Of a stretch of DNA of 64,000 nt, positions 49,326 to 59,131 are shown in pieces. Source of the DNA: Hymenobacter gelipurpurascens. GTDB taxonomy: Bacteria; Bacteroidota; Bacteroidia; Cytophagales; Hymenobacteraceae. The stretch's first letter is position 1, and every line of letters starts with the position of its first letter. The translations under genes and the position numbers were made by a program. The notes under the pieces were generated by a model. That model was not told the origin of the DNA, made no database searches, and saw nothing but the letters and a program-made list of their open reading frames with translations. The stretch lies in contig NZ_FYEW01000001.1 of assembly GCF_900187375.1 (NCBI RefSeq), positions 310,001 through 374,000 of the forward strand, given 5' to 3'.

Positions 49326-49436
49326 ATGCAGTCACATCTGAATTGCACTTTATGCCAGCCCCAGGATAAACGGCCCATTAGCCGCGAGGGGAAGTGGTGC
49401 GACCGGGATTTTTCGTTGGACAATTCACGTAGGTAA
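49326..49436 (+). CDS. Tiny Cys-containing ORF with its own terminator
   Basis: 36 residues: QSHLNCTLCQPQDKRPISRE in the first part, then GKWCDRDFSLDNSRR. CxxC followed by a third Cys suggests metal binding or a disulfide. A terminator follows at 49458-49494. Second of two tandem mini-units before the Ro60 gene. May instead be a small RNA; no family recognised. Confidence 0.35.
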   Translation: MQSHLNCTLCQPQDKRPISREGKWCDRDFSLDNSRR

Positions 49437-49457
49437 ATACCTAGTGATGTATCCTTG

Positions 49458-49494
49458 AAAAAAGCCCGGCTCTCCATATGAGTCGGGCTTTTTT
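49458..49494 (+). terminator. Intrinsic terminator
   Basis: AAAAAAGCCCGGCT (49458-49471) pairs with AGTCGGGCTTTTTT (49481-49494). The stem ends in a T-run on both strands. Confidence 0.85.
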
Positions 49495-49595
49495 CATATC
49501 CGTTATTCGAATAAATAATTAATTTATTCGGACAGGAATTGCTGTGTCTTTACGGTAAATTATTAATTAAAAAATAACGCCTAATCTCAGAAATC

Positions 49596-49661
49596 ATGTA
49601 CGATCTGTTTCGCCTTTCTGAATACGAAACGGCCATCGACTGGCCTACAGAAGAAGAGTAG
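49596..49661 (+). CDS. Possible leader peptide upstream of the Ro60 gene
   Basis: 21 residues (MYDLFRLSEYETAIDWPTEE plus E), acidic, ending 35 bases before the Ro60 ATG. Preceded by an AT-rich promoter-like stretch (49500-49590) with TATTCGAATA. Could be a leader peptide or chance. Confidence 0.3.
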   Translation: MYDLFRLSEYETAIDWPTEEE

Positions 49662-49696: not shown

Positions 49697-51265
49697 ATGC
49701 GCTTTAATTCTACCCTTCGCAATCCTCAACCCGATACTATTAACCACGAAGGCGCGGCCGCTTACACGCTCACGCCTGCTCTGGAACTGTATGCGGCTGT
49801 AGCTACGGCTGCTTTACAGGACCAGTTCTATGAGAAAGCCGATGCCCGCCTGACGCGCTTGCGCGAGCTGGTAGCGAAAAACGATGCCTTGTTCGTGGCC
49901 CGGCTGGCCGTGTATGCCCGCGAACAGCTCCATCTGCGCTCCGTGCCGCTGGTGCTGTGCGTGGAACTGGCCAAGCTGCACCGCGGCGACAACCTCGTGA
50001 GCCGCCTGGTGGCCCGCGTGGTGCAGCGCGCCGATGAAATCACGGAGCTACTGGCCTACTACGCCCAGGCTAACAAGCGGAGCGGGACGAAAACCCTCAA
50101 CCGTCTCTCGAAGCAGCTGCAGAAAGGCCTGGCCCAGAGCTTCAACCGCTTCGATGGCTACCAACTGGCCAAATACGACCGGGCCGGGGCCGTGCGCCTC
50201 CGCGACGCGCTGTTTCTGGTGCACCCTACGCCCCAGAATGAGGCCCAGCAAGCCCTGTTCAACCAATTGGTGTCCGGTACGTTGCCCACGCCCTACACTT
50301 GGGAAACGGAACTGTCGGCGCTGGGGCAGGCAGAGTATGCCACGCCCGAGGCCCGCACTGCGGCCTTCCGCCAGAAGTGGGAGGAGCTGATTGGCAGCGG
50401 CAAAGTGGGCTACATGGCCTTGCTACGGAACCTGCGCAACATCCTGGAAGCAGGAGTAGCCCCGGAGCTGGTGGCGCGGGCCTGTGCTACTCTCTCCGAT
50501 GAGCGAGCTGTGGCACATAGTAAGCAGCTGCCGTTTCGCTTCTTGGCCGCTTACCGCGAGGTGAAAGCGCTGCAAACGGGCGTGGTGCCTACGTTGCTGG
50601 GTATGCTCAGCCTCCGCCCCAACCCGGTGGTAGATGTGCTGGCGGCTCTGGAAACTGCCATTGGCTACAGCGCGGCCAACCTGCGCGGTTTCGGCCCCGA
50701 AACCCGCGTGGTGGTAGCCTGCGACGTGTCGGGCTCTATGCAGCATCCTATTTCGGCGCGCAGCAAAGTGCTGCACTACGATGTAGGCCTGGTACTGGGC
50801 ATGTTGCTGCAGAGTCGATGCCAAAATGTGGTAGCGGGCATGTTCGGCAACACCTGGAAGCGCCTGAACCTGCCCCGCGGGCCGGTGCTGCGCAACGTAG
50901 AAGAGTTCTACAAGCGCGAAGGCGAAGTAGGCTACAGCACTAACGGCTACCTCGTTATAGAGGACCTGCGGCGCCGCCGTGAGATGGTAGATAAGGTGAT
51001 GCTATTCACCGACTGCCAGCTCTGGAACAGCCACTTCAATGGCACCAGCATCGATAAGGAATGGGCTGAGTACCGCCGCACGGTGGCACCCAACGCCCGC
51101 CTCTACCTCTTCGACCTGGCCGGCCACAGCACCTCGCCGCTGCAGGTACACCCCGAGCACGGCGTGGCCCTGATAGCAGGCTGGTCGGATAAAATATTCG
51201 ACGTGTTGGCCGCCCTGGAAAGCGGGGGCTCAGCCCTCACCGCCATCGAAGCAATAGAGGTGTAA
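49697..51265 (+). CDS. rsr: Ro60-like TROVE-domain RNA-binding protein
   Basis: 522 residues, normal for bacterial Ro/Rsr. The N-terminal HEAT-repeat TROVE ring (about 15-330) starts NHEGAAAYTLTPALELYAAVATAALQDQFYEKA and has the repeated RLRELVAKNDALFVARLAVYARE. The C-terminal vWA domain (about 340-522) has an intact MIDAS: VVACDVSGSMQHPISARSK (DxSxS) and MLFTDCQLWNS. Ro60 is a ring that holds misfolded RNA ends in its channel and Y RNA on its surface; in bacteria it works with exoribonucleases in stress RNA maturation and decay. It stands just upstream of a tandem array of Y-RNA-like units and rtcB, on the same strand. Confidence 0.95.
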   Translation: MRFNSTLRNPQPDTINHEGAAAYTLTPALELYAAVATAALQDQFYEKADARLTRLRELVAKNDALFVARLAVYAREQLHLRSVPLVLCVELAKLHRGDNLVSRLVARVVQRADEITELLAYYAQANKRSGTKTLNRLSKQLQKGLAQSFNRFDGYQLAKYDRAGAVRLRDALFLVHPTPQNEAQQALFNQLVSGTLPTPYTWETELSALGQAEYATPEARTAAFRQKWEELIGSGKVGYMALLRNLRNILEAGVAPELVARACATLSDERAVAHSKQLPFRFLAAYREVKALQTGVVPTLLGMLSLRPNPVVDVLAALETAIGYSAANLRGFGPETRVVVACDVSGSMQHPISARSKVLHYDVGLVLGMLLQSRCQNVVAGMFGNTWKRLNLPRGPVLRNVEEFYKREGEVGYSTNGYLVIEDLRRRREMVDKVMLFTDCQLWNSHFNGTSIDKEWAEYRRTVAPNARLYLFDLAGHSTSPLQVHPEHGVALIAGWSDKIFDVLAALESGGSALTAIEAIEV

Positions 51266-51279
51266 CCTATTAAAGCGGC

Positions 51280-51325
51280 CCCGGAAGTGGCCTAGACACC
51301 AAGAAAAGCTTCTGCCACTTCCGGG
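51280..51325 (+). terminator. 12-bp inverted repeat after the Ro60 gene
   Basis: CCCGGAAGTGGC (51280-51291) is perfectly complementary to GCCACTTCCGGG (51314-51325). No T-run follows, so it may be a processing or pausing element between the Ro60 message and the RNA array rather than a full stop. Bases 51326-51434 hold nothing else that I recognise except a short inverted pair CAATATC/GATATTG. Confidence 0.5.
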
Positions 51326-51434
51326 TTACTGCCCGAAACCAAGAATAGGTAAAACAACCTCCGCAGTATCCAAACGCATATTTCTACCATCATTCACTCA
51401 ATATCCATGTACAGCTTTTCGTTTAGATATTGGG

Positions 51435-51500
51435 AAGGCGGCTGACCATACTGGCAGCCGTCGGCCGGAACGGTACACAGCCGGAGCCTCGTTGCTTCGG
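51435..51500 (+). ncRNA. Y-RNA-like unit 0, no tRNA mimic (weak)
   Basis: AGGCGGCTGACCATACTGGC at the start is a diverged form of the unit block (GGTGYCGTAG...TACTTCG). CGGCTG/CAGCCG (51439-51460) forms a hairpin. The end GAGCCTCGTTGCTTCGG matches the array's 3' block CCTGTTGCC, and its GCCT can pair with the initial AGGC. In place of the tRNA-like part only short hairpins are present. The 3' block could alternatively pair with the start of unit A. Lowest confidence of the array. Confidence 0.35.
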
Positions 51501-51532
51501 CCCCCGTTCCAACCCCGGCTGACTCACCATCT

Positions 51533-51648
51533 CAGGTGCCGTAGGTGGGCGATACTTCGCTTGGTTGAAGCAAAACAACTGTTTTGCTAGGGTTCGATTC
51601 CCCTTCCGTGGCCTTGGCTGCGGATGACACGCCTGCCGCCTGTCGCCC
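51533..51648 (+). ncRNA. Y-RNA-like unit A with partial tRNA mimic
   Basis: Start block CAGGTG-CCGTAG (51533-51544) and TACTTCG (51553-51559). Hairpin GCAAAAC-aact-GTTTTGC (51570-51587) sits where a tRNA variable arm would be. T arm with loop TTCGATT (51593-51599). Acceptor stem TCCGTGG/CTGCGGA (51605-51611 with 51618-51624, 7 bp including G-U) closed by a 6-base loop. The D arm is not recognisable. The end CGCCTG (51637-51642) pairs with the starting CAGGTG and continues TCGCCC. Confidence 0.6.
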
Positions 51649-51683
51649 TGAATCGGTGAGTTCAGCCGGAAAAATTACCCTGC

Positions 51684-51816
51684 TGGGTGCCGTCGCGTAG
51701 CGTTACTTCGGGTCATACGTTCGATTCGTATCAGGACTGCTTTCTTCATCCACCTTGTCCTGTAGCTCAGTTGGTAGAGCAGAAAGGCTTCGGCCACCGC
51801 TTGCACCTGTTGCCCC
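51684..51816 (+). ncRNA. Y-RNA-like unit B with permuted tRNA mimic (Ala/Val-like D arm)
   Basis: Start block TGGGTGCCGTCGCG (51684-51697) and TACTTCG (51704-51710). Perfect T arm ATACG-TTCGATT-CGTAT (51715-51731). Acceptor CAGGAC (51732-51737) pairs with GTCCTG (51757-51762) across a 19-base loop, in permuted order. Then TA and the D arm GCTCAGTTGGTAGAGC (51765-51780), identical to real tRNAs. GGC-TTCG-GCC hairpin at 51786-51795. The end GCACCTG (51803-51809) pairs 7 bp with the start, followed by TTGCC. Confidence 0.72.
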
Positions 51817-51865
51817 GGCATTTATTATTACTACTATAGCATCCTTTTAACCATTCTACCTTAAG

Positions 51866-51992
51866 CAGGTGTCGTAGGCCAGTGCTACTTCGGTATAGTG
51901 CCCGTTGTGGGCGTGCAGGTTTAAATCCTGTCGGGTGGCCTAAGCCATCGGTGGCGAAATAGTAGACGCGCTATAGTCACGCACCAGCCGCT
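51866..51992 (+). ncRNA. Y-RNA-like unit C with permuted tRNA mimic (Leu-like D arm)
   Basis: Start block CAGGTGTCGTAG (51866-51877) and TACTTCG (51886-51892). Variable-arm-like hairpin GCCC-gttgt-GGGC (51900-51912). T arm GCAGG-TTTAAAT-CCTGT (51915-51931). Acceptor CGGGTGGC/GCCATCGG (51932-51939 with 51944-51951, one mismatch) closed by the tetraloop CTAA. The D arm TGGCGAAATAGTAGACGCG is that of a tRNA-Leu. The end GCACC (51981-51985) pairs with the starting GGTGT, followed by AGCCGC. Confidence 0.7.
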
Positions 51993-52018
51993 TATTACCC
52001 TGATACTTATGTAGCTGT

Positions 52019-52150
52019 ATGAGTGCCGTAGCTGGGCCTTACTTCGCACTTTTAATGCCCAGGTCGTGGGTTCAAATCCCACCGACTGCTGCTCTGGCGG
52101 CAGCTGTAGCTCAGTTGGTAGAGCAGGACTGGCCTAGCGTGTGTTGCCTC
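52019..52150 (+). ncRNA. Y-RNA-like unit D with permuted tRNA mimic (Ala/Val-like D arm)
   Basis: Start block ATGAGTGCCGTAG (52019-52031) and TACTTCG (52040-52046). T arm GTGGG-TTCAAAT-CCCAC (52066-52082), perfect. Acceptor CGACTGCTGC/GCGGCAGCTG (52083-52092 with 52097-52106, one mismatch) closed by TCTG. The spacing after the T stem and before T-A is exactly that of a tRNA, but permuted. D arm GCTCAGTTGGTAGAGC (52109-52124). The end GCGTGTGT (52137-52144) pairs with the start over 7 of 8 positions, followed by TGCC. Confidence 0.72.
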
Positions 52151-52174
52151 ATACAGTTATCTGTTTTTACCTAA

Positions 52175-52297
52175 CGGGTGTCGTAGCGAAGCCATACTTC
52201 GTCTGATACGGTGGGGTCGTGGGTTCGAGTCCCACCTGCCGCATGGGCAGTAGCTCAGTTGGTTAGAGCACATTTGGGGGCTTCGCGCCTGTTGCCT
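52175..52297 (+). ncRNA. Y-RNA-like unit E with permuted tRNA mimic
   Basis: Start block CGGGTGTCGTAG (52175-52186) and TACTTCG (52195-52201). T arm GTGGG-TTCGAGT-CCCAC (52219-52235), perfect consensus. Short acceptor CTGCC/GGCAG (52236-52240 with 52246-52250) with loop GCATG. D arm GCTCAGTTGGTTAGAGC (52253-52269). GGC-TTCGC-GCC hairpin follows the D arm, as in unit B. The end GCGCCTG (52285-52291) pairs with the start over 7 positions, followed by TTGCC. Confidence 0.72.
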
Positions 52298-52325
52298 TGT
52301 TAGGTAAAATATCGGTGGGGTCCGG

Positions 52326-52420
52326 AAGGTGTCGTAGAGCCGCCTTACTTCGCCTGAAAAACCTCCTGGCGGTTCGTTTTTCACCCCTCCAGATTCCTGG
52401 ATGCGGCCTGTATTACACTA
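52326..52420 (+). ncRNA. Y-RNA-like unit F, tRNA mimic replaced by a plain hairpin
   Basis: Start block AAGGTGTCGTAG (52326-52337) and TACTTCG (52346-52352) are as good as in the other units. Instead of T, acceptor and D arms there is GAAAAAC (52356-52362) pairing with GTTTTTC (52376-52382). A possible 3' block GCCTGTATT is at 52407-52415; CACC at 52382-52385 could instead pair with the initial GGTG. Reads as a Y RNA without the tRNA-like module, or a decayed unit. Confidence 0.45.
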
Positions 52421-52604
52421 TTAACTGCTTCATACACTATCTACTATTTCTTCACCAGCTGGCCTAGGCCAGTAATTACGCATCCGTTAGCATGTCCCGA
52501 AAACCTACTTCCACCACTATCCGGCGCAGCAAATAGCGCCCGGCAATTCACTTTATCGGCAGCCAGCACCTATAGGCCTGTCTGCTGGCTTCAATTCCCC
52601 AATT
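52421..52604 (+). promoter_or_regulatory. Spacer before rtcB with a leader hairpin
   Basis: Contains a GGCCTAGGCC copy within ACTGGCC-like flanks (52461), a 14-residue basic mini-ORF at 52491 (MSRKPTSTTIRRSK, doubtful), and AGCCAGCA (52561-52568) paired perfectly with TGCTGGCT (52583-52590). That hairpin ends 14 bases before the rtcB ATG and could affect translation or mark an RNA-processing site. Confidence 0.4.
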
Positions 52605-54008
52605 ATGGCTTCTCAATTACGCGGCAACGACCTTCGGCAGCTTGGCTTCCCCGAAGGACGTGCCATCGGGCTCGCGCTGGCTCAACTGCAGCGCAAGCAC
52701 CTCAAAAGACTCTCCCAAACCGACCAGTTCACCTTGCTGAAGACGTTGCTGGCGGGCCCTTCTAACTTCTTAACCGACCTCGACTGGAGCCACACGGCCG
52801 CCGCTTTGCTGCCCGCGCCCAGTCGCCACATCCAGCTCACGGAGCGCAAGCCCTACGCGGTCTTCGGTCCCGAGTACATTGAGCATGGGGCTATCCATCA
52901 GATGGAAACGGCCATGAAGCTGCCCATCACGGTAGCCGGCGCCCTCATGCCCGATGCCCACCACGGCTATGGCCTGCCCATTGGCGGGGTGCTGGCTACT
53001 GATAACGCCGTGATTCCCTATGCAGTAGGCGTTGACATTGGCTGCCGGATGGCGCTGTCCATATTTGCACTGCCGCCCAAGCACCTGGAGCAGCGCGTAC
53101 AGGAAATGCGCAAGCTCCTGCTCGATAACACCCGTTTTGGCAACCGCCAAGGTTTCCAGCGAGGTACTAAGCTCGACCATACCGTGCTCGAACGCGACGA
53201 ATTCCGCGACATCGGCTTTCTGCGCAACAAACAAGCTACGGCCGCCGAGCAGATTGGTACTTCCGGCTCCGGCAACCACTTCGTGGAATGGGGCATTGTG
53301 GATATTATCGACCCCGCTAATGAGCTGGGCGTGCCCCTAGGCCAGTATGTAGGCCTGCTTTCACACTCCGGCTCCCGGGGGCTGGGCGCCAGCGTGGCTA
53401 ACCACTACACCAAGCTGGCCAAGGACGTGTGCCAGTTGCCCGCCGAAGCTCAGCACCTTGCTTGGCTTTCCCTGGAAAGCGAAGCCGGCCAACAATACTG
53501 GGCGGCCATGAACCTGGCTGGCGACTACGCCTCCGCGTGTCACCACCAGATTCATCAGCGCCTGGCCAAAGCCCTCGGTGAGCGGCCCCTGGCGAAAGTG
53601 GAAAACCACCACAACTTCGCATGGAAAGAACGTTTGGCCGATGGCCGCGAGGTGGTGGTGCACCGGAAAGGCGCCACCCCGGCCGGCGCGGGCGTGCTGG
53701 GTATTATCCCCGGTTCCATGACGGCCCCCGGCTTTATTGTGCGGGGCCGCGGCAATGCCGATTCGTTGGCTTCGGCCTCGCACGGGGCCGGCCGGGCCAT
53801 GTCCCGGACCCGCGCCAAGCAAGAACTGGGCGAGGCCGAAGTGCGGCGCTACCTGCAGCAGCACGGCATCGAACTGATTGGGGGCGGCGTGGATGAGGCA
53901 CCCCAGGCCTACAAGGACATTCATGCCGTGATGCAGAGCCAGCAGGAGCTGGTAGATGTGCTGGGCTCCTTCACGCCCCGCATTGTACGCATGGACGGGG
54001 CCTCCTAG
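52605..54008 (+). CDS. rtcB: RNA ligase RtcB
   Basis: 467 residues. RtcB joins RNA ends carrying 2',3'-cyclic or 3'-phosphate to 5'-OH using GTP and Mn2+. Active-site motifs: DAHHGYGLPIGGVLAT, VGVDIGCRM (metal Cys), GTSGSGNHFVEWG, HSGSRGLGA, VENHHNFAWKE, HRKGATPAG and the guanylylated His in SASHGAGRAMSRTRAKQ. The end follows the usual EAPQAYKDIHAVMQSQQELV. No archease, RtcA or RtcR gene is nearby. It comes after the Ro60 gene and Y-RNA array in the same direction, so its targets may include the array RNAs or RNAs held by Ro60. Confidence 0.96.
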   Translation: MASQLRGNDLRQLGFPEGRAIGLALAQLQRKHLKRLSQTDQFTLLKTLLAGPSNFLTDLDWSHTAAALLPAPSRHIQLTERKPYAVFGPEYIEHGAIHQMETAMKLPITVAGALMPDAHHGYGLPIGGVLATDNAVIPYAVGVDIGCRMALSIFALPPKHLEQRVQEMRKLLLDNTRFGNRQGFQRGTKLDHTVLERDEFRDIGFLRNKQATAAEQIGTSGSGNHFVEWGIVDIIDPANELGVPLGQYVGLLSHSGSRGLGASVANHYTKLAKDVCQLPAEAQHLAWLSLESEAGQQYWAAMNLAGDYASACHHQIHQRLAKALGERPLAKVENHHNFAWKERLADGREVVVHRKGATPAGAGVLGIIPGSMTAPGFIVRGRGNADSLASASHGAGRAMSRTRAKQELGEAEVRRYLQQHGIELIGGGVDEAPQAYKDIHAVMQSQQELVDVLGSFTPRIVRMDGAS

Positions 54009-54026
54009 GCCACTTGTTCGTGTAAT

Positions 54027-54061
54027 AAAAAGGAGCCTGATAAAACGTCAGGCTCCTTTTT
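54027..54061 (+). terminator. Intrinsic terminator after rtcB
   Basis: AAAAAGGAGCCTGA (54027-54040) pairs perfectly with TCAGGCTCCTTTTT (54048-54061). It marks the end of the Ro60-Y RNA-rtcB unit. Confidence 0.9.
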
Positions 54062-59042: not shown

Positions 59043-59124
59043 GCGCACGTGGTGAAACTGGTAGACACGCCATCTTGAGGGGGTGGTGCCTTCGGGTGTG
59101 GGAGTTCGAATCTCCCCGCGCGCA
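59043..59124 (+). tRNA. tRNA-Leu (anticodon GAG)
   Basis: Class II tRNA. Acceptor GCGCACG/CGCGCGC (6 of 7 pairs), D arm TGGTGAAACTGGTAGACAC, anticodon stem CCATC/GGTGG with loop TTGAGGG, long variable arm TGCCTTCGGGTG region, T arm GGGAG-TTCGAAT-CTCCC, discriminator A. CCA is not encoded. It is the only ordinary tRNA in the window, and a useful contrast with the permuted mimics at 51.5-52.3 kb. Confidence 0.95.
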
Positions 59125-59131
59125 CTCAGAC

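What the first reader, a model, noticed from the sequence alone, without database searches (positions are those of the whole stretch)
49697..54061. Ro60 - tandem Y-RNA-like array - RtcB: a candidate RNA-repair unit
Seen: a TROVE/vWA Ro60 gene, about 1.0 kb without a protein gene, then rtcB and a perfect terminator, all on one strand. The gap has at least six, perhaps seven, units. Each begins GGTGYCGTAG...TACTTCG and ends with a strand complementary to its start plus GTTGCC-like sequence. Known: bacterial Ro60 binds Y RNAs; YrlA-type Y RNAs mimic tRNA; Rsr, Y RNAs and tRNA-like RNAs are linked to RtcB in some bacteria. Inference: an expanded, diversified set of Ro60 ligands acting with an RNA ligase is, to my knowledge, not described for this lineage and could repair or sort cleaved tRNAs.
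Basis: partly seen in the sequence, partly recalled or inferred. Interest (0 to 1): 0.95.

Follow-up and report, generated by a model that had tools for sequence, protein, structure and literature searches.

The report
Ro60 array of varied tRNA mimics
Between the genes for a Ro60 ring protein and an RNA ligase, this Hymenobacter-like genome carries six predicted small RNA genes, four of them with tRNA parts in a rearranged order and one of these resembling a leucine tRNA; they likely dock on Ro60 and would let it borrow the cell's tRNA-handling enzymes, an expanded version of the known bacterial Y RNAs.

Summary
A Ro60 gene (49697-51265), six RNA units (51530-52391) and rtcB (52605-54008) lie on one strand. 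Forty-eight units (46 from relatives) show strong covariation. Units have the Y RNA (YrlA) plan: a basal stem with a conserved motif, then a tRNA in circularly permuted order (T arm, closed acceptor stem, D arm). New here: (1) tRNA core positions 15 and 48 covary (G-C 179, A-U 28, G-U 0 of 226), so a true tRNA core is predicted; (2) units of one array can resemble different tRNAs, including Leu and Ser types; (3) in 200 genomes of the family, strong array matches occur in 101 of 101 with a strong Ro60 match and 0 of 93 without Ro60, while 10 of 11 genomes with this RtcB but no strong Ro60 match lack them. So the array follows Ro60, not RtcB. No unit in the window or 11 further loci reaches Rfam's YrlA threshold. 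The Ro60-Y RNA-RtcB linkage and tRNA mimicry by Y RNAs are already known; tRNA-type-diversified arrays across Bacteroidota are a variant I did not find in print. Most likely each RNA tethers Ro60 and presents a tRNA elbow to a partner enzyme; expression, Ro60 binding and any tRNA-repair role are untested.

The parts
49697..51265 (+). ro60 (rsr-like) gene, TROVE ring plus vWA domain
   Evidence: ORF; Pfam TROVE E 8.3e-27; model matches 9kop, 9l5y, 1yvp, 2nvo
51280..51325 (+). 12-bp perfect hairpin just after ro60; single copy in the genome by the strict pattern; possible processing site (function inferred)
   Evidence: strict pattern found between ro60 and rtcB in 13 of 101 loci with A-T to G-C covariation at one position; perfect inverted repeats of 9 bp or more within 160 nt after ro60 in 52 of 101 loci against 4 after shuffling
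51530..51653 (+). unit 1: Y stem, hairpin plus T arm and closed acceptor-like stem, no D arm
   Evidence: R1 E 8.7e-11; class
51681..51820 (+). unit 2: permuted tRNA-like module, T arm soon after the TACTTCG motif, class I D arm
   Evidence: R1 E 1.2e-16; Rfam YrlA 37.4 bits, below the gathering score 69
51863..52005 (+). unit 3: tRNA-Leu-like module (D arm nearest to own tRNA-Leu CAG)
   Evidence: R1 E 3.4e-14; D-half nearest-tRNA scores (its T half alone scores nearest to tRNA-Pro)
52017..52154 (+). unit 4: permuted class I tRNA-like module
   Evidence: R1 E 2.7e-31 (a row of the model); YrlA 28.5 bits
52172..52302 (+). unit 5: permuted class I tRNA-like module
   Evidence: R1 E 2.1e-33 (a row of the model); YrlA 42.6 bits
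52323..52391 (+). unit 6: short Y RNA with basal stem and conserved motifs but no tRNA-like module
   Evidence: R1 E 1.6e-9
52605..54008 (+). rtcB, RNA ligase family gene
   Evidence: PF01139 E 3.5e-85; alignment to 1uc2 keeps the Cys and His positions that I recall as its metal site
54027..54061 (+). intrinsic terminator after rtcB
   Evidence: sequence

Best explanation
The gap between ro60 and rtcB holds a tandem array of six predicted Y RNAs, four of which carry a circularly permuted tRNA module, likely bound by Ro60 and likely used to present tRNA-like elbows to partner enzymes. Anatomy (shown by covariation and conservation): an outer stem, the motif GYCGUAG facing GUUGCC, an inner 8-bp stem, a conserved UACUUCG, then T arm, an acceptor stem closed by a loop, and D arm; the ends lie where the anticodon arm would be. 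Core positions 15 and 48 covary as in real tRNAs. Inferred: the basal stem binds the Ro60 ring, as in known Ro60-Y RNA complexes; the elbow recruits a tRNA-elbow-binding enzyme, most likely polynucleotide phosphorylase as in the RYPER machine, or tRNA-modifying enzymes such as DusA and TruB; and the array supplies several differently shaped adaptors, so that one Ro60 can serve several clients. RtcB, co-oriented downstream in the Hymenobacter lineage, would mend broken RNAs that this system handles but is not needed for the array to be kept.
For: Six units found by model R1 and nothing else in the window below E 0.08. Covariation on 48 units: 96.6% of cells paired, 25 of 31 pairs with changes on both sides, 338 double-change cells against 94 in shuffles, score 0.650 against 0.185 (rows were chosen for pairing in the outer and inner stems, not for T, acceptor and D stems, which are 100%, 93.3% and 99.5% paired). 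Positions 15-48: G-C 179, A-U 28, A-C 7, G-U 0, other 12 of 226 units with a D arm; Fisher p 7e-29 by unit and 2.8e-5 over distinct cluster-combinations. Ro60 and array: 101 of 101 genomes with a strong Ro60 match against 0 of 93 without and 1 of 6 with only fragments; 41 of the 101 gave rows to the model and match by construction, the other 60 did not. Outside the family, 34 of 38 Ro60 genomes of the order have a strong array match, and the other four have weaker units beside Ro60; 29 of 30 named loci outside Hymenobacter have matches. Different tRNA types in one array: Leu/Ser-type D arms go with long variable arms in 13 of 16 clusters against 5 of 24 for class I (p 2.7e-4) and with longer junctions (p 3.5e-5). 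Tether role of YrlA on Ro60/PNPase and its DusA/TruB modification: passages of PMC8394870.
Against: No expression or binding data. Nearest-tRNA labels are weak for many units: 164 of 426 units and 40 of 80 clusters could not be assigned to either type, and a sequence-only comparison of variable arms gave no difference for Leu plus Ser against class I clusters (p 0.40). Window units 2 and 4 share an identical 23-nt D-arm stretch (D6), so the window itself shows clearly only class I and Leu types; for unit 3 the D half is Leu-like but the T half scores nearest to Pro. 200 of 426 T-loop units lack a D arm by my strict criterion. No unit in the window or in 11 loci passes Rfam's YrlA threshold. 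Weak R1 matches can be ordinary tRNA genes (L285, L307). A PNPase link in this lineage is inferred only from other species.
Confidence: 0.6

Rival explanations
1. Decoy library: the units are Ro60-stabilised bait for enzymes or toxins that attack particular tRNAs; different units bait different attackers, and RtcB mends what is still cut.
For: Different tRNA types in one array and varied unit sets (81 unit clusters with fewer than 4 members); RtcB downstream in 89 of 101 loci. The authors of PMC7790460 propose YrlA as a possible competitive inhibitor of an anticodon nuclease (section read).
Against: The anticodon arm, the target of anticodon nucleases, is what the units lack; the acceptor stem is closed and variable; the array is kept in genera without this RtcB orthologue.
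Confidence: 0.2
2. Co-acting RNA-repair unit: array, Ro60 and RtcB form one pathway that repairs or sorts cleaved tRNAs.
For: Same strand and order Ro60-array-RtcB in the 89 loci of 101 in which RtcB lies downstream within the fetched stretch; the Salmonella operon is induced by tRNA fragments (PMC7790460 passages); a PARG-type gene sits between ro60 and rtcB in 34 loci.
Against: Array presence follows Ro60, not RtcB: 10 of 11 genomes with this RtcB but no strong Ro60 match lack a strong array match, and 11 genomes have the array without this RtcB.
Confidence: 0.17
3. Decayed tRNA gene cluster or other non-functional repeats.
For: Strong tRNA similarity; real tRNA genes lie within or beside some arrays (L302, L303, L312, L315, L307).
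Against: Permuted order in unit after unit, compensatory changes in every helix, position 15-48 covariation, absence of the array where Ro60 is absent.
Confidence: 0.03

Closest known systems
YrlA-type bacterial Y RNA (Rfam RF02553; Salmonella YrlA, PDB 6CU1 as cited in PMC11472068)
   Same: Basal stem plus T arm - closed acceptor stem - D arm in circularly permuted order; encoded beside Ro60; same order of helices as in the Rfam alignment
   Different: Three weak matches in the window, 28.5-42.6 bits against a gathering score of 69, none over threshold in 11 loci; conserved UACUUCG after the inner stem; many units per locus; Leu, Ser and Gln-like D arms
rsr-yrlBA-rtcBA RNA-repair operon of Salmonella (PMC7790460, passages and one section)
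   Same: Ro60 orthologue, Y RNAs and RtcB in one co-oriented unit
   Different: Two Y RNAs (YrlA, YrlB) there; six here and 3-9 model matches per strong-array genome of the family; rtcA and the RtcR activator were not searched for here
RYPER: Rsr - Y RNA - PNPase (PMC8394870 and PMC7790460 passages)
   Same: Proposed use of the Y RNA as a tether between Ro60 and a partner enzyme
   Different: No partner shown here; array of differently shaped units
Bacteroides thetaiotaomicron Ro60 RNP with Y RNAs (PMC11277228 passage citing Greiling et al. 2018)
   Same: Bacteroidota Ro60 with Y RNAs recovered experimentally
   Different: Array structure and tRNA types not stated in the passage seen

Membership tests
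Ro60/Rsr protein | TROVE ring with vWA domain, fold of solved Ro60/Rsr | tested here: met
   TROVE E 8.3e-27; vWA_Ro60 just below its cut-off (25.7 of 27.7 bits); the 13 PDB fold matches with E <= 0.001 are Ro60/TROVE. NCBIfam Rsr equivalog only 29.5 of 900 bits
Bacterial Y RNA (YrlA kind) | Encoded beside Ro60 | tested here: met
Bacterial Y RNA (YrlA kind) | Long basal stem from pairing 5' and 3' ends | tested here: met
   (465 of 552 inner helices with at least 7 of 8 pairs; control 86)
Bacterial Y RNA (YrlA kind) | Permuted tRNA-like domain: T arm, acceptor, D arm | tested here: met
   met by window units 2-5, partly by unit 1 (no D arm), not by unit 6
Bacterial Y RNA (YrlA kind) | Rfam RF02553 gathering score 69 bits | tested here: not met
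   best 42.6 bits; no unit in 11 loci
Bacterial Y RNA (YrlA kind) | Binding to Ro60; D and pseudouridine modification | not testable with these tools
   needs pull-down and modification mapping
RtcB RNA ligase | RtcB domain with metal-site Cys/His residues | tested here: met
   PF01139 E 3.5e-85; Cys and His positions of 1uc2 (metal-site role recalled) are kept in the alignment. Ligase activity not tested
RNA-repair operon with activator RtcR and RtcA | rtcR and rtcA adjacent | not tested
   no search was made for either
tRNA genes | Cloverleaf with anticodon arm | tested here: not met
   ARAGORN finds none in the window's array; in three Prevotella-type loci (L302, L303, L306) it does call one unit a tRNA-Leu

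The most novel reading that the evidence does not exclude
Bacteroidota carry an evolving library of Ro60-bound RNAs in which members imitate different tRNAs down to their tertiary core and variable arm, so Ro60 becomes a switchable platform that recruits or baits tRNA-specific enzymes one tRNA type at a time.
Probability: 0.3. Interest if true: 0.85.

Novelty: new variant of a known kind. Interest (0 to 1): 0.62.

Why it matters
The function of bacterial Y RNAs is unsettled. A natural series of tRNA-type-diversified Y RNAs, present in every genome of the family sample with a strong Ro60 match, gives a direct test of what the tRNA-like part is for: if it recruits particular tRNA enzymes, partners should differ unit by unit. 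The 15-48 covariation is genetic evidence that the mimicry reaches tertiary structure. The PARG-type gene in 34 loci adds a testable link: 3'-ADP-ribosylated RNA is not ligated by E. coli RtcB, and human PARG can remove ADP-ribose from RNA (PMC9458441 passages).

Tried and rejected
Single-sequence folding: uninformative for most units. A seventh unit in the window: not found by the model. Bacteroidota promoter consensus (recalled) upstream of ro60: 10 of 101 loci against 5.4 expected by shuffling, 2 loci between ro60 and the array; not informative. Variable-arm sequence similarity as a test of Leu/Ser mimicry: negative at cluster level for Leu plus Ser (p 0.40), although the mean for Leu-type units is higher (9.2 against 5.9 for class I); hairpin and junction-length tests were positive; all three are reported. 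The hairpin detector misses some real variable arms (own tRNA-Leu CAG and Ser GCT) and calls some class I junctions long because they pair with the TACTTCG strand. Thr_leader and MicC Rfam matches at 49424-49566 lie on a terminator-like hairpin. Thresholds for 'strong' (Ro60 E < 1e-80, array E < 1e-15 in the family, E < 1e-12 in the order) were set after seeing the values; in the family no Ro60 value lies between 4.3e-37 and 1.4e-89 and no array value between 1.1e-9 and 1.7e-22. The RtcB orthologue set was read by hand from the listed matches (74% identity or more, plus G190, whose gene is split in L128). The 2014 paper on tRNA mimicry by bacterial Y RNAs is not held. I searched the held library 8 times and saw no description of tRNA-type-diversified Y RNA arrays; the main primary papers are not held, so novelty is not proven.
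Full report
What is there. The region reads ro60 (49697-51265), a 12-bp hairpin (51280-51325), six RNA units (51530-52391), rtcB (52605-54008) and a terminator, all on the + strand. The nearest named relatives by Ro60 are Hymenobacter fodinae and H. wooponensis at 91% (records very near the window may be left out there). The AlphaFold model of Ro60 (mean pLDDT 81) has 13 PDB matches at E <= 0.001, all Ro60/TROVE structures. RtcB aligns with Pyrococcus RtcB including the Cys and His positions that I recall as its metal site.

Units. With the window this makes 101 loci; in 89 of them rtcB lies downstream within the fetched stretch, always on the same strand, gap 800-4465 nt. A pattern scan gave 607 hits, 573 were clustered and 552 scored for pairing: inner helix at least 7 of 8 pairs in 465, against 86 when strands were swapped between classes; 175 distinct 5' strands. 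An alignment of 48 class I units from 41 genomes shows 25 of 31 pairs with changes on both sides, covariation score 0.650 against 0.185. These rows had been chosen for good outer and inner stems, so the independent part of that result is the T (100%), acceptor (93.3%) and D (99.5%) helices.

tRNA mimicry. The order T arm - acceptor - D arm is a circular permutation of tRNA, as published for YrlA (PMC11472068, passages seen). The acceptor stem is closed by a loop (a UUCG or GNRA loop in 174 of 426 units by a simple scan; CCA at the end of the T half in 10). Of 226 units with a recognisable D arm, positions 15 and 48 (the Levitt pair, a name I recall) are G-C in 179 and A-U in 28, with A-C 7, G-U 0 and 12 other; p 7e-29 by unit, 2.8e-5 over distinct cluster-combinations; own tRNAs show G-C 21, A-U 5, A-C 1. 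Units of one array can resemble different tRNAs: 48 of 100 loci hold both class I and Leu/Ser-type D arms. Leu/Ser-type D arms co-occur with long variable arms (13 of 16 clusters against 5 of 24) and longer junctions, but not with variable-arm sequence similarity when Leu and Ser are pooled. By nearest own tRNA, other Bacteroidota show a Gln-like D arm (L292, Flavobacterium, score 17 against 13), a Ser-like one (L332, unnamed member of the order, 17) and, weakly, a Pro-like one (L290, Taibaiella, 15 against 14) and Glu/Gln-like ones (L291, Chitinophaga, 11).

Link to Ro60. Among 200 genomes of the family (own genome included), 101 have a strong Ro60 match (E < 1e-80; a few of these are split, partial or hold in-frame stops), and all 101 have strong array matches (E < 1e-15), 3-9 per genome; 60 of them gave no row to the model. 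Of 93 without Ro60 none has, though 40 show weak matches (best E 1.1e-9, G191), some of which may be ordinary tRNA genes; of 6 with only Ro60 fragments one has (G150, where matches cover only the two ends of Ro60). The orthologue of this RtcB occurs without a strong Ro60 match in 11 genomes, 10 of them without a strong array match; 11 genomes have Ro60 and the array but no RtcB orthologue of this kind. In the order, 38 genomes outside the family have Ro60; 34 have strong array matches, four weaker ones beside Ro60. One genome (G301) has units at a contig end and no Ro60 found. Of 30 named loci outside Hymenobacter, 29 have matches; the exception, L314, begins inside Ro60. L346, the Ro60 contig of G330, has none; the match of that genome lies on another contig. 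In the phylum sample 28 of 395 genomes have a TROVE match.

Interpretation. The best reading is an expanded set of Y RNAs that Ro60 likely binds. The tether role is taken from work in other bacteria (PMC8394870, PMC7790460: passages and one section read). A direct tRNA-repair role with RtcB stays open; the co-occurrence data make RtcB an optional neighbour. Expression, binding and partners are untested.

Known and new. Known: Y RNAs beside Ro60, tRNA mimicry, circular permutation, linkage to RtcB, Y RNAs in a Bacteroidota Ro60 RNP. I did not find in print (8 searches of the held library; main primary papers not held): arrays with units of different tRNA types, the 15-48 covariation in Y RNAs, and the presence-absence link across a family.

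Noticed in passing
34 relatives, for example L034, L103 (between ro60 and the array): A microbial-type PARG gene (PF10021 E 1.4e-44, TIGR02452; L034 copy tested) lies on the same strand; not in the window. It could unblock ADP-ribosylated RNA ends for RtcB (inference)..
   Followed up: partly
9 relatives, for example L099 (between the array and rtcB): A PcfJ-like gene (PF14284 E 2.5e-10; L099 copy tested) lies between array and rtcB..
   Followed up: partly
L302, L303, L312, L315 (Prevotella/Bacteroidaceae) and L307: tRNA-Met genes sit within the array beside Ro60 in four loci; L307 has 23 tRNA calls around its array. ARAGORN also calls one unit each in L302, L303 and L306 a tRNA-Leu.
   Followed up: partly
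window 51280-51325: Conserved 12-bp hairpin after ro60, one copy in the genome by the strict pattern, with A-T to G-C covariation in relatives; possible processing site.
   Followed up: partly
own genome C1:299025-300410: A second RtcB (66% identical) about 10 kb before the window; 27 of 89 loci have a second rtcB within the fetched stretch.
   Followed up: no
window 49596-49661: A 21-codon ATG reading frame just upstream of ro60; possible leader.
   Followed up: no
window 59043-59125: tRNA-Leu (GAG), the only tRNA that ARAGORN finds in the window, 5 kb after rtcB.
   Followed up: no
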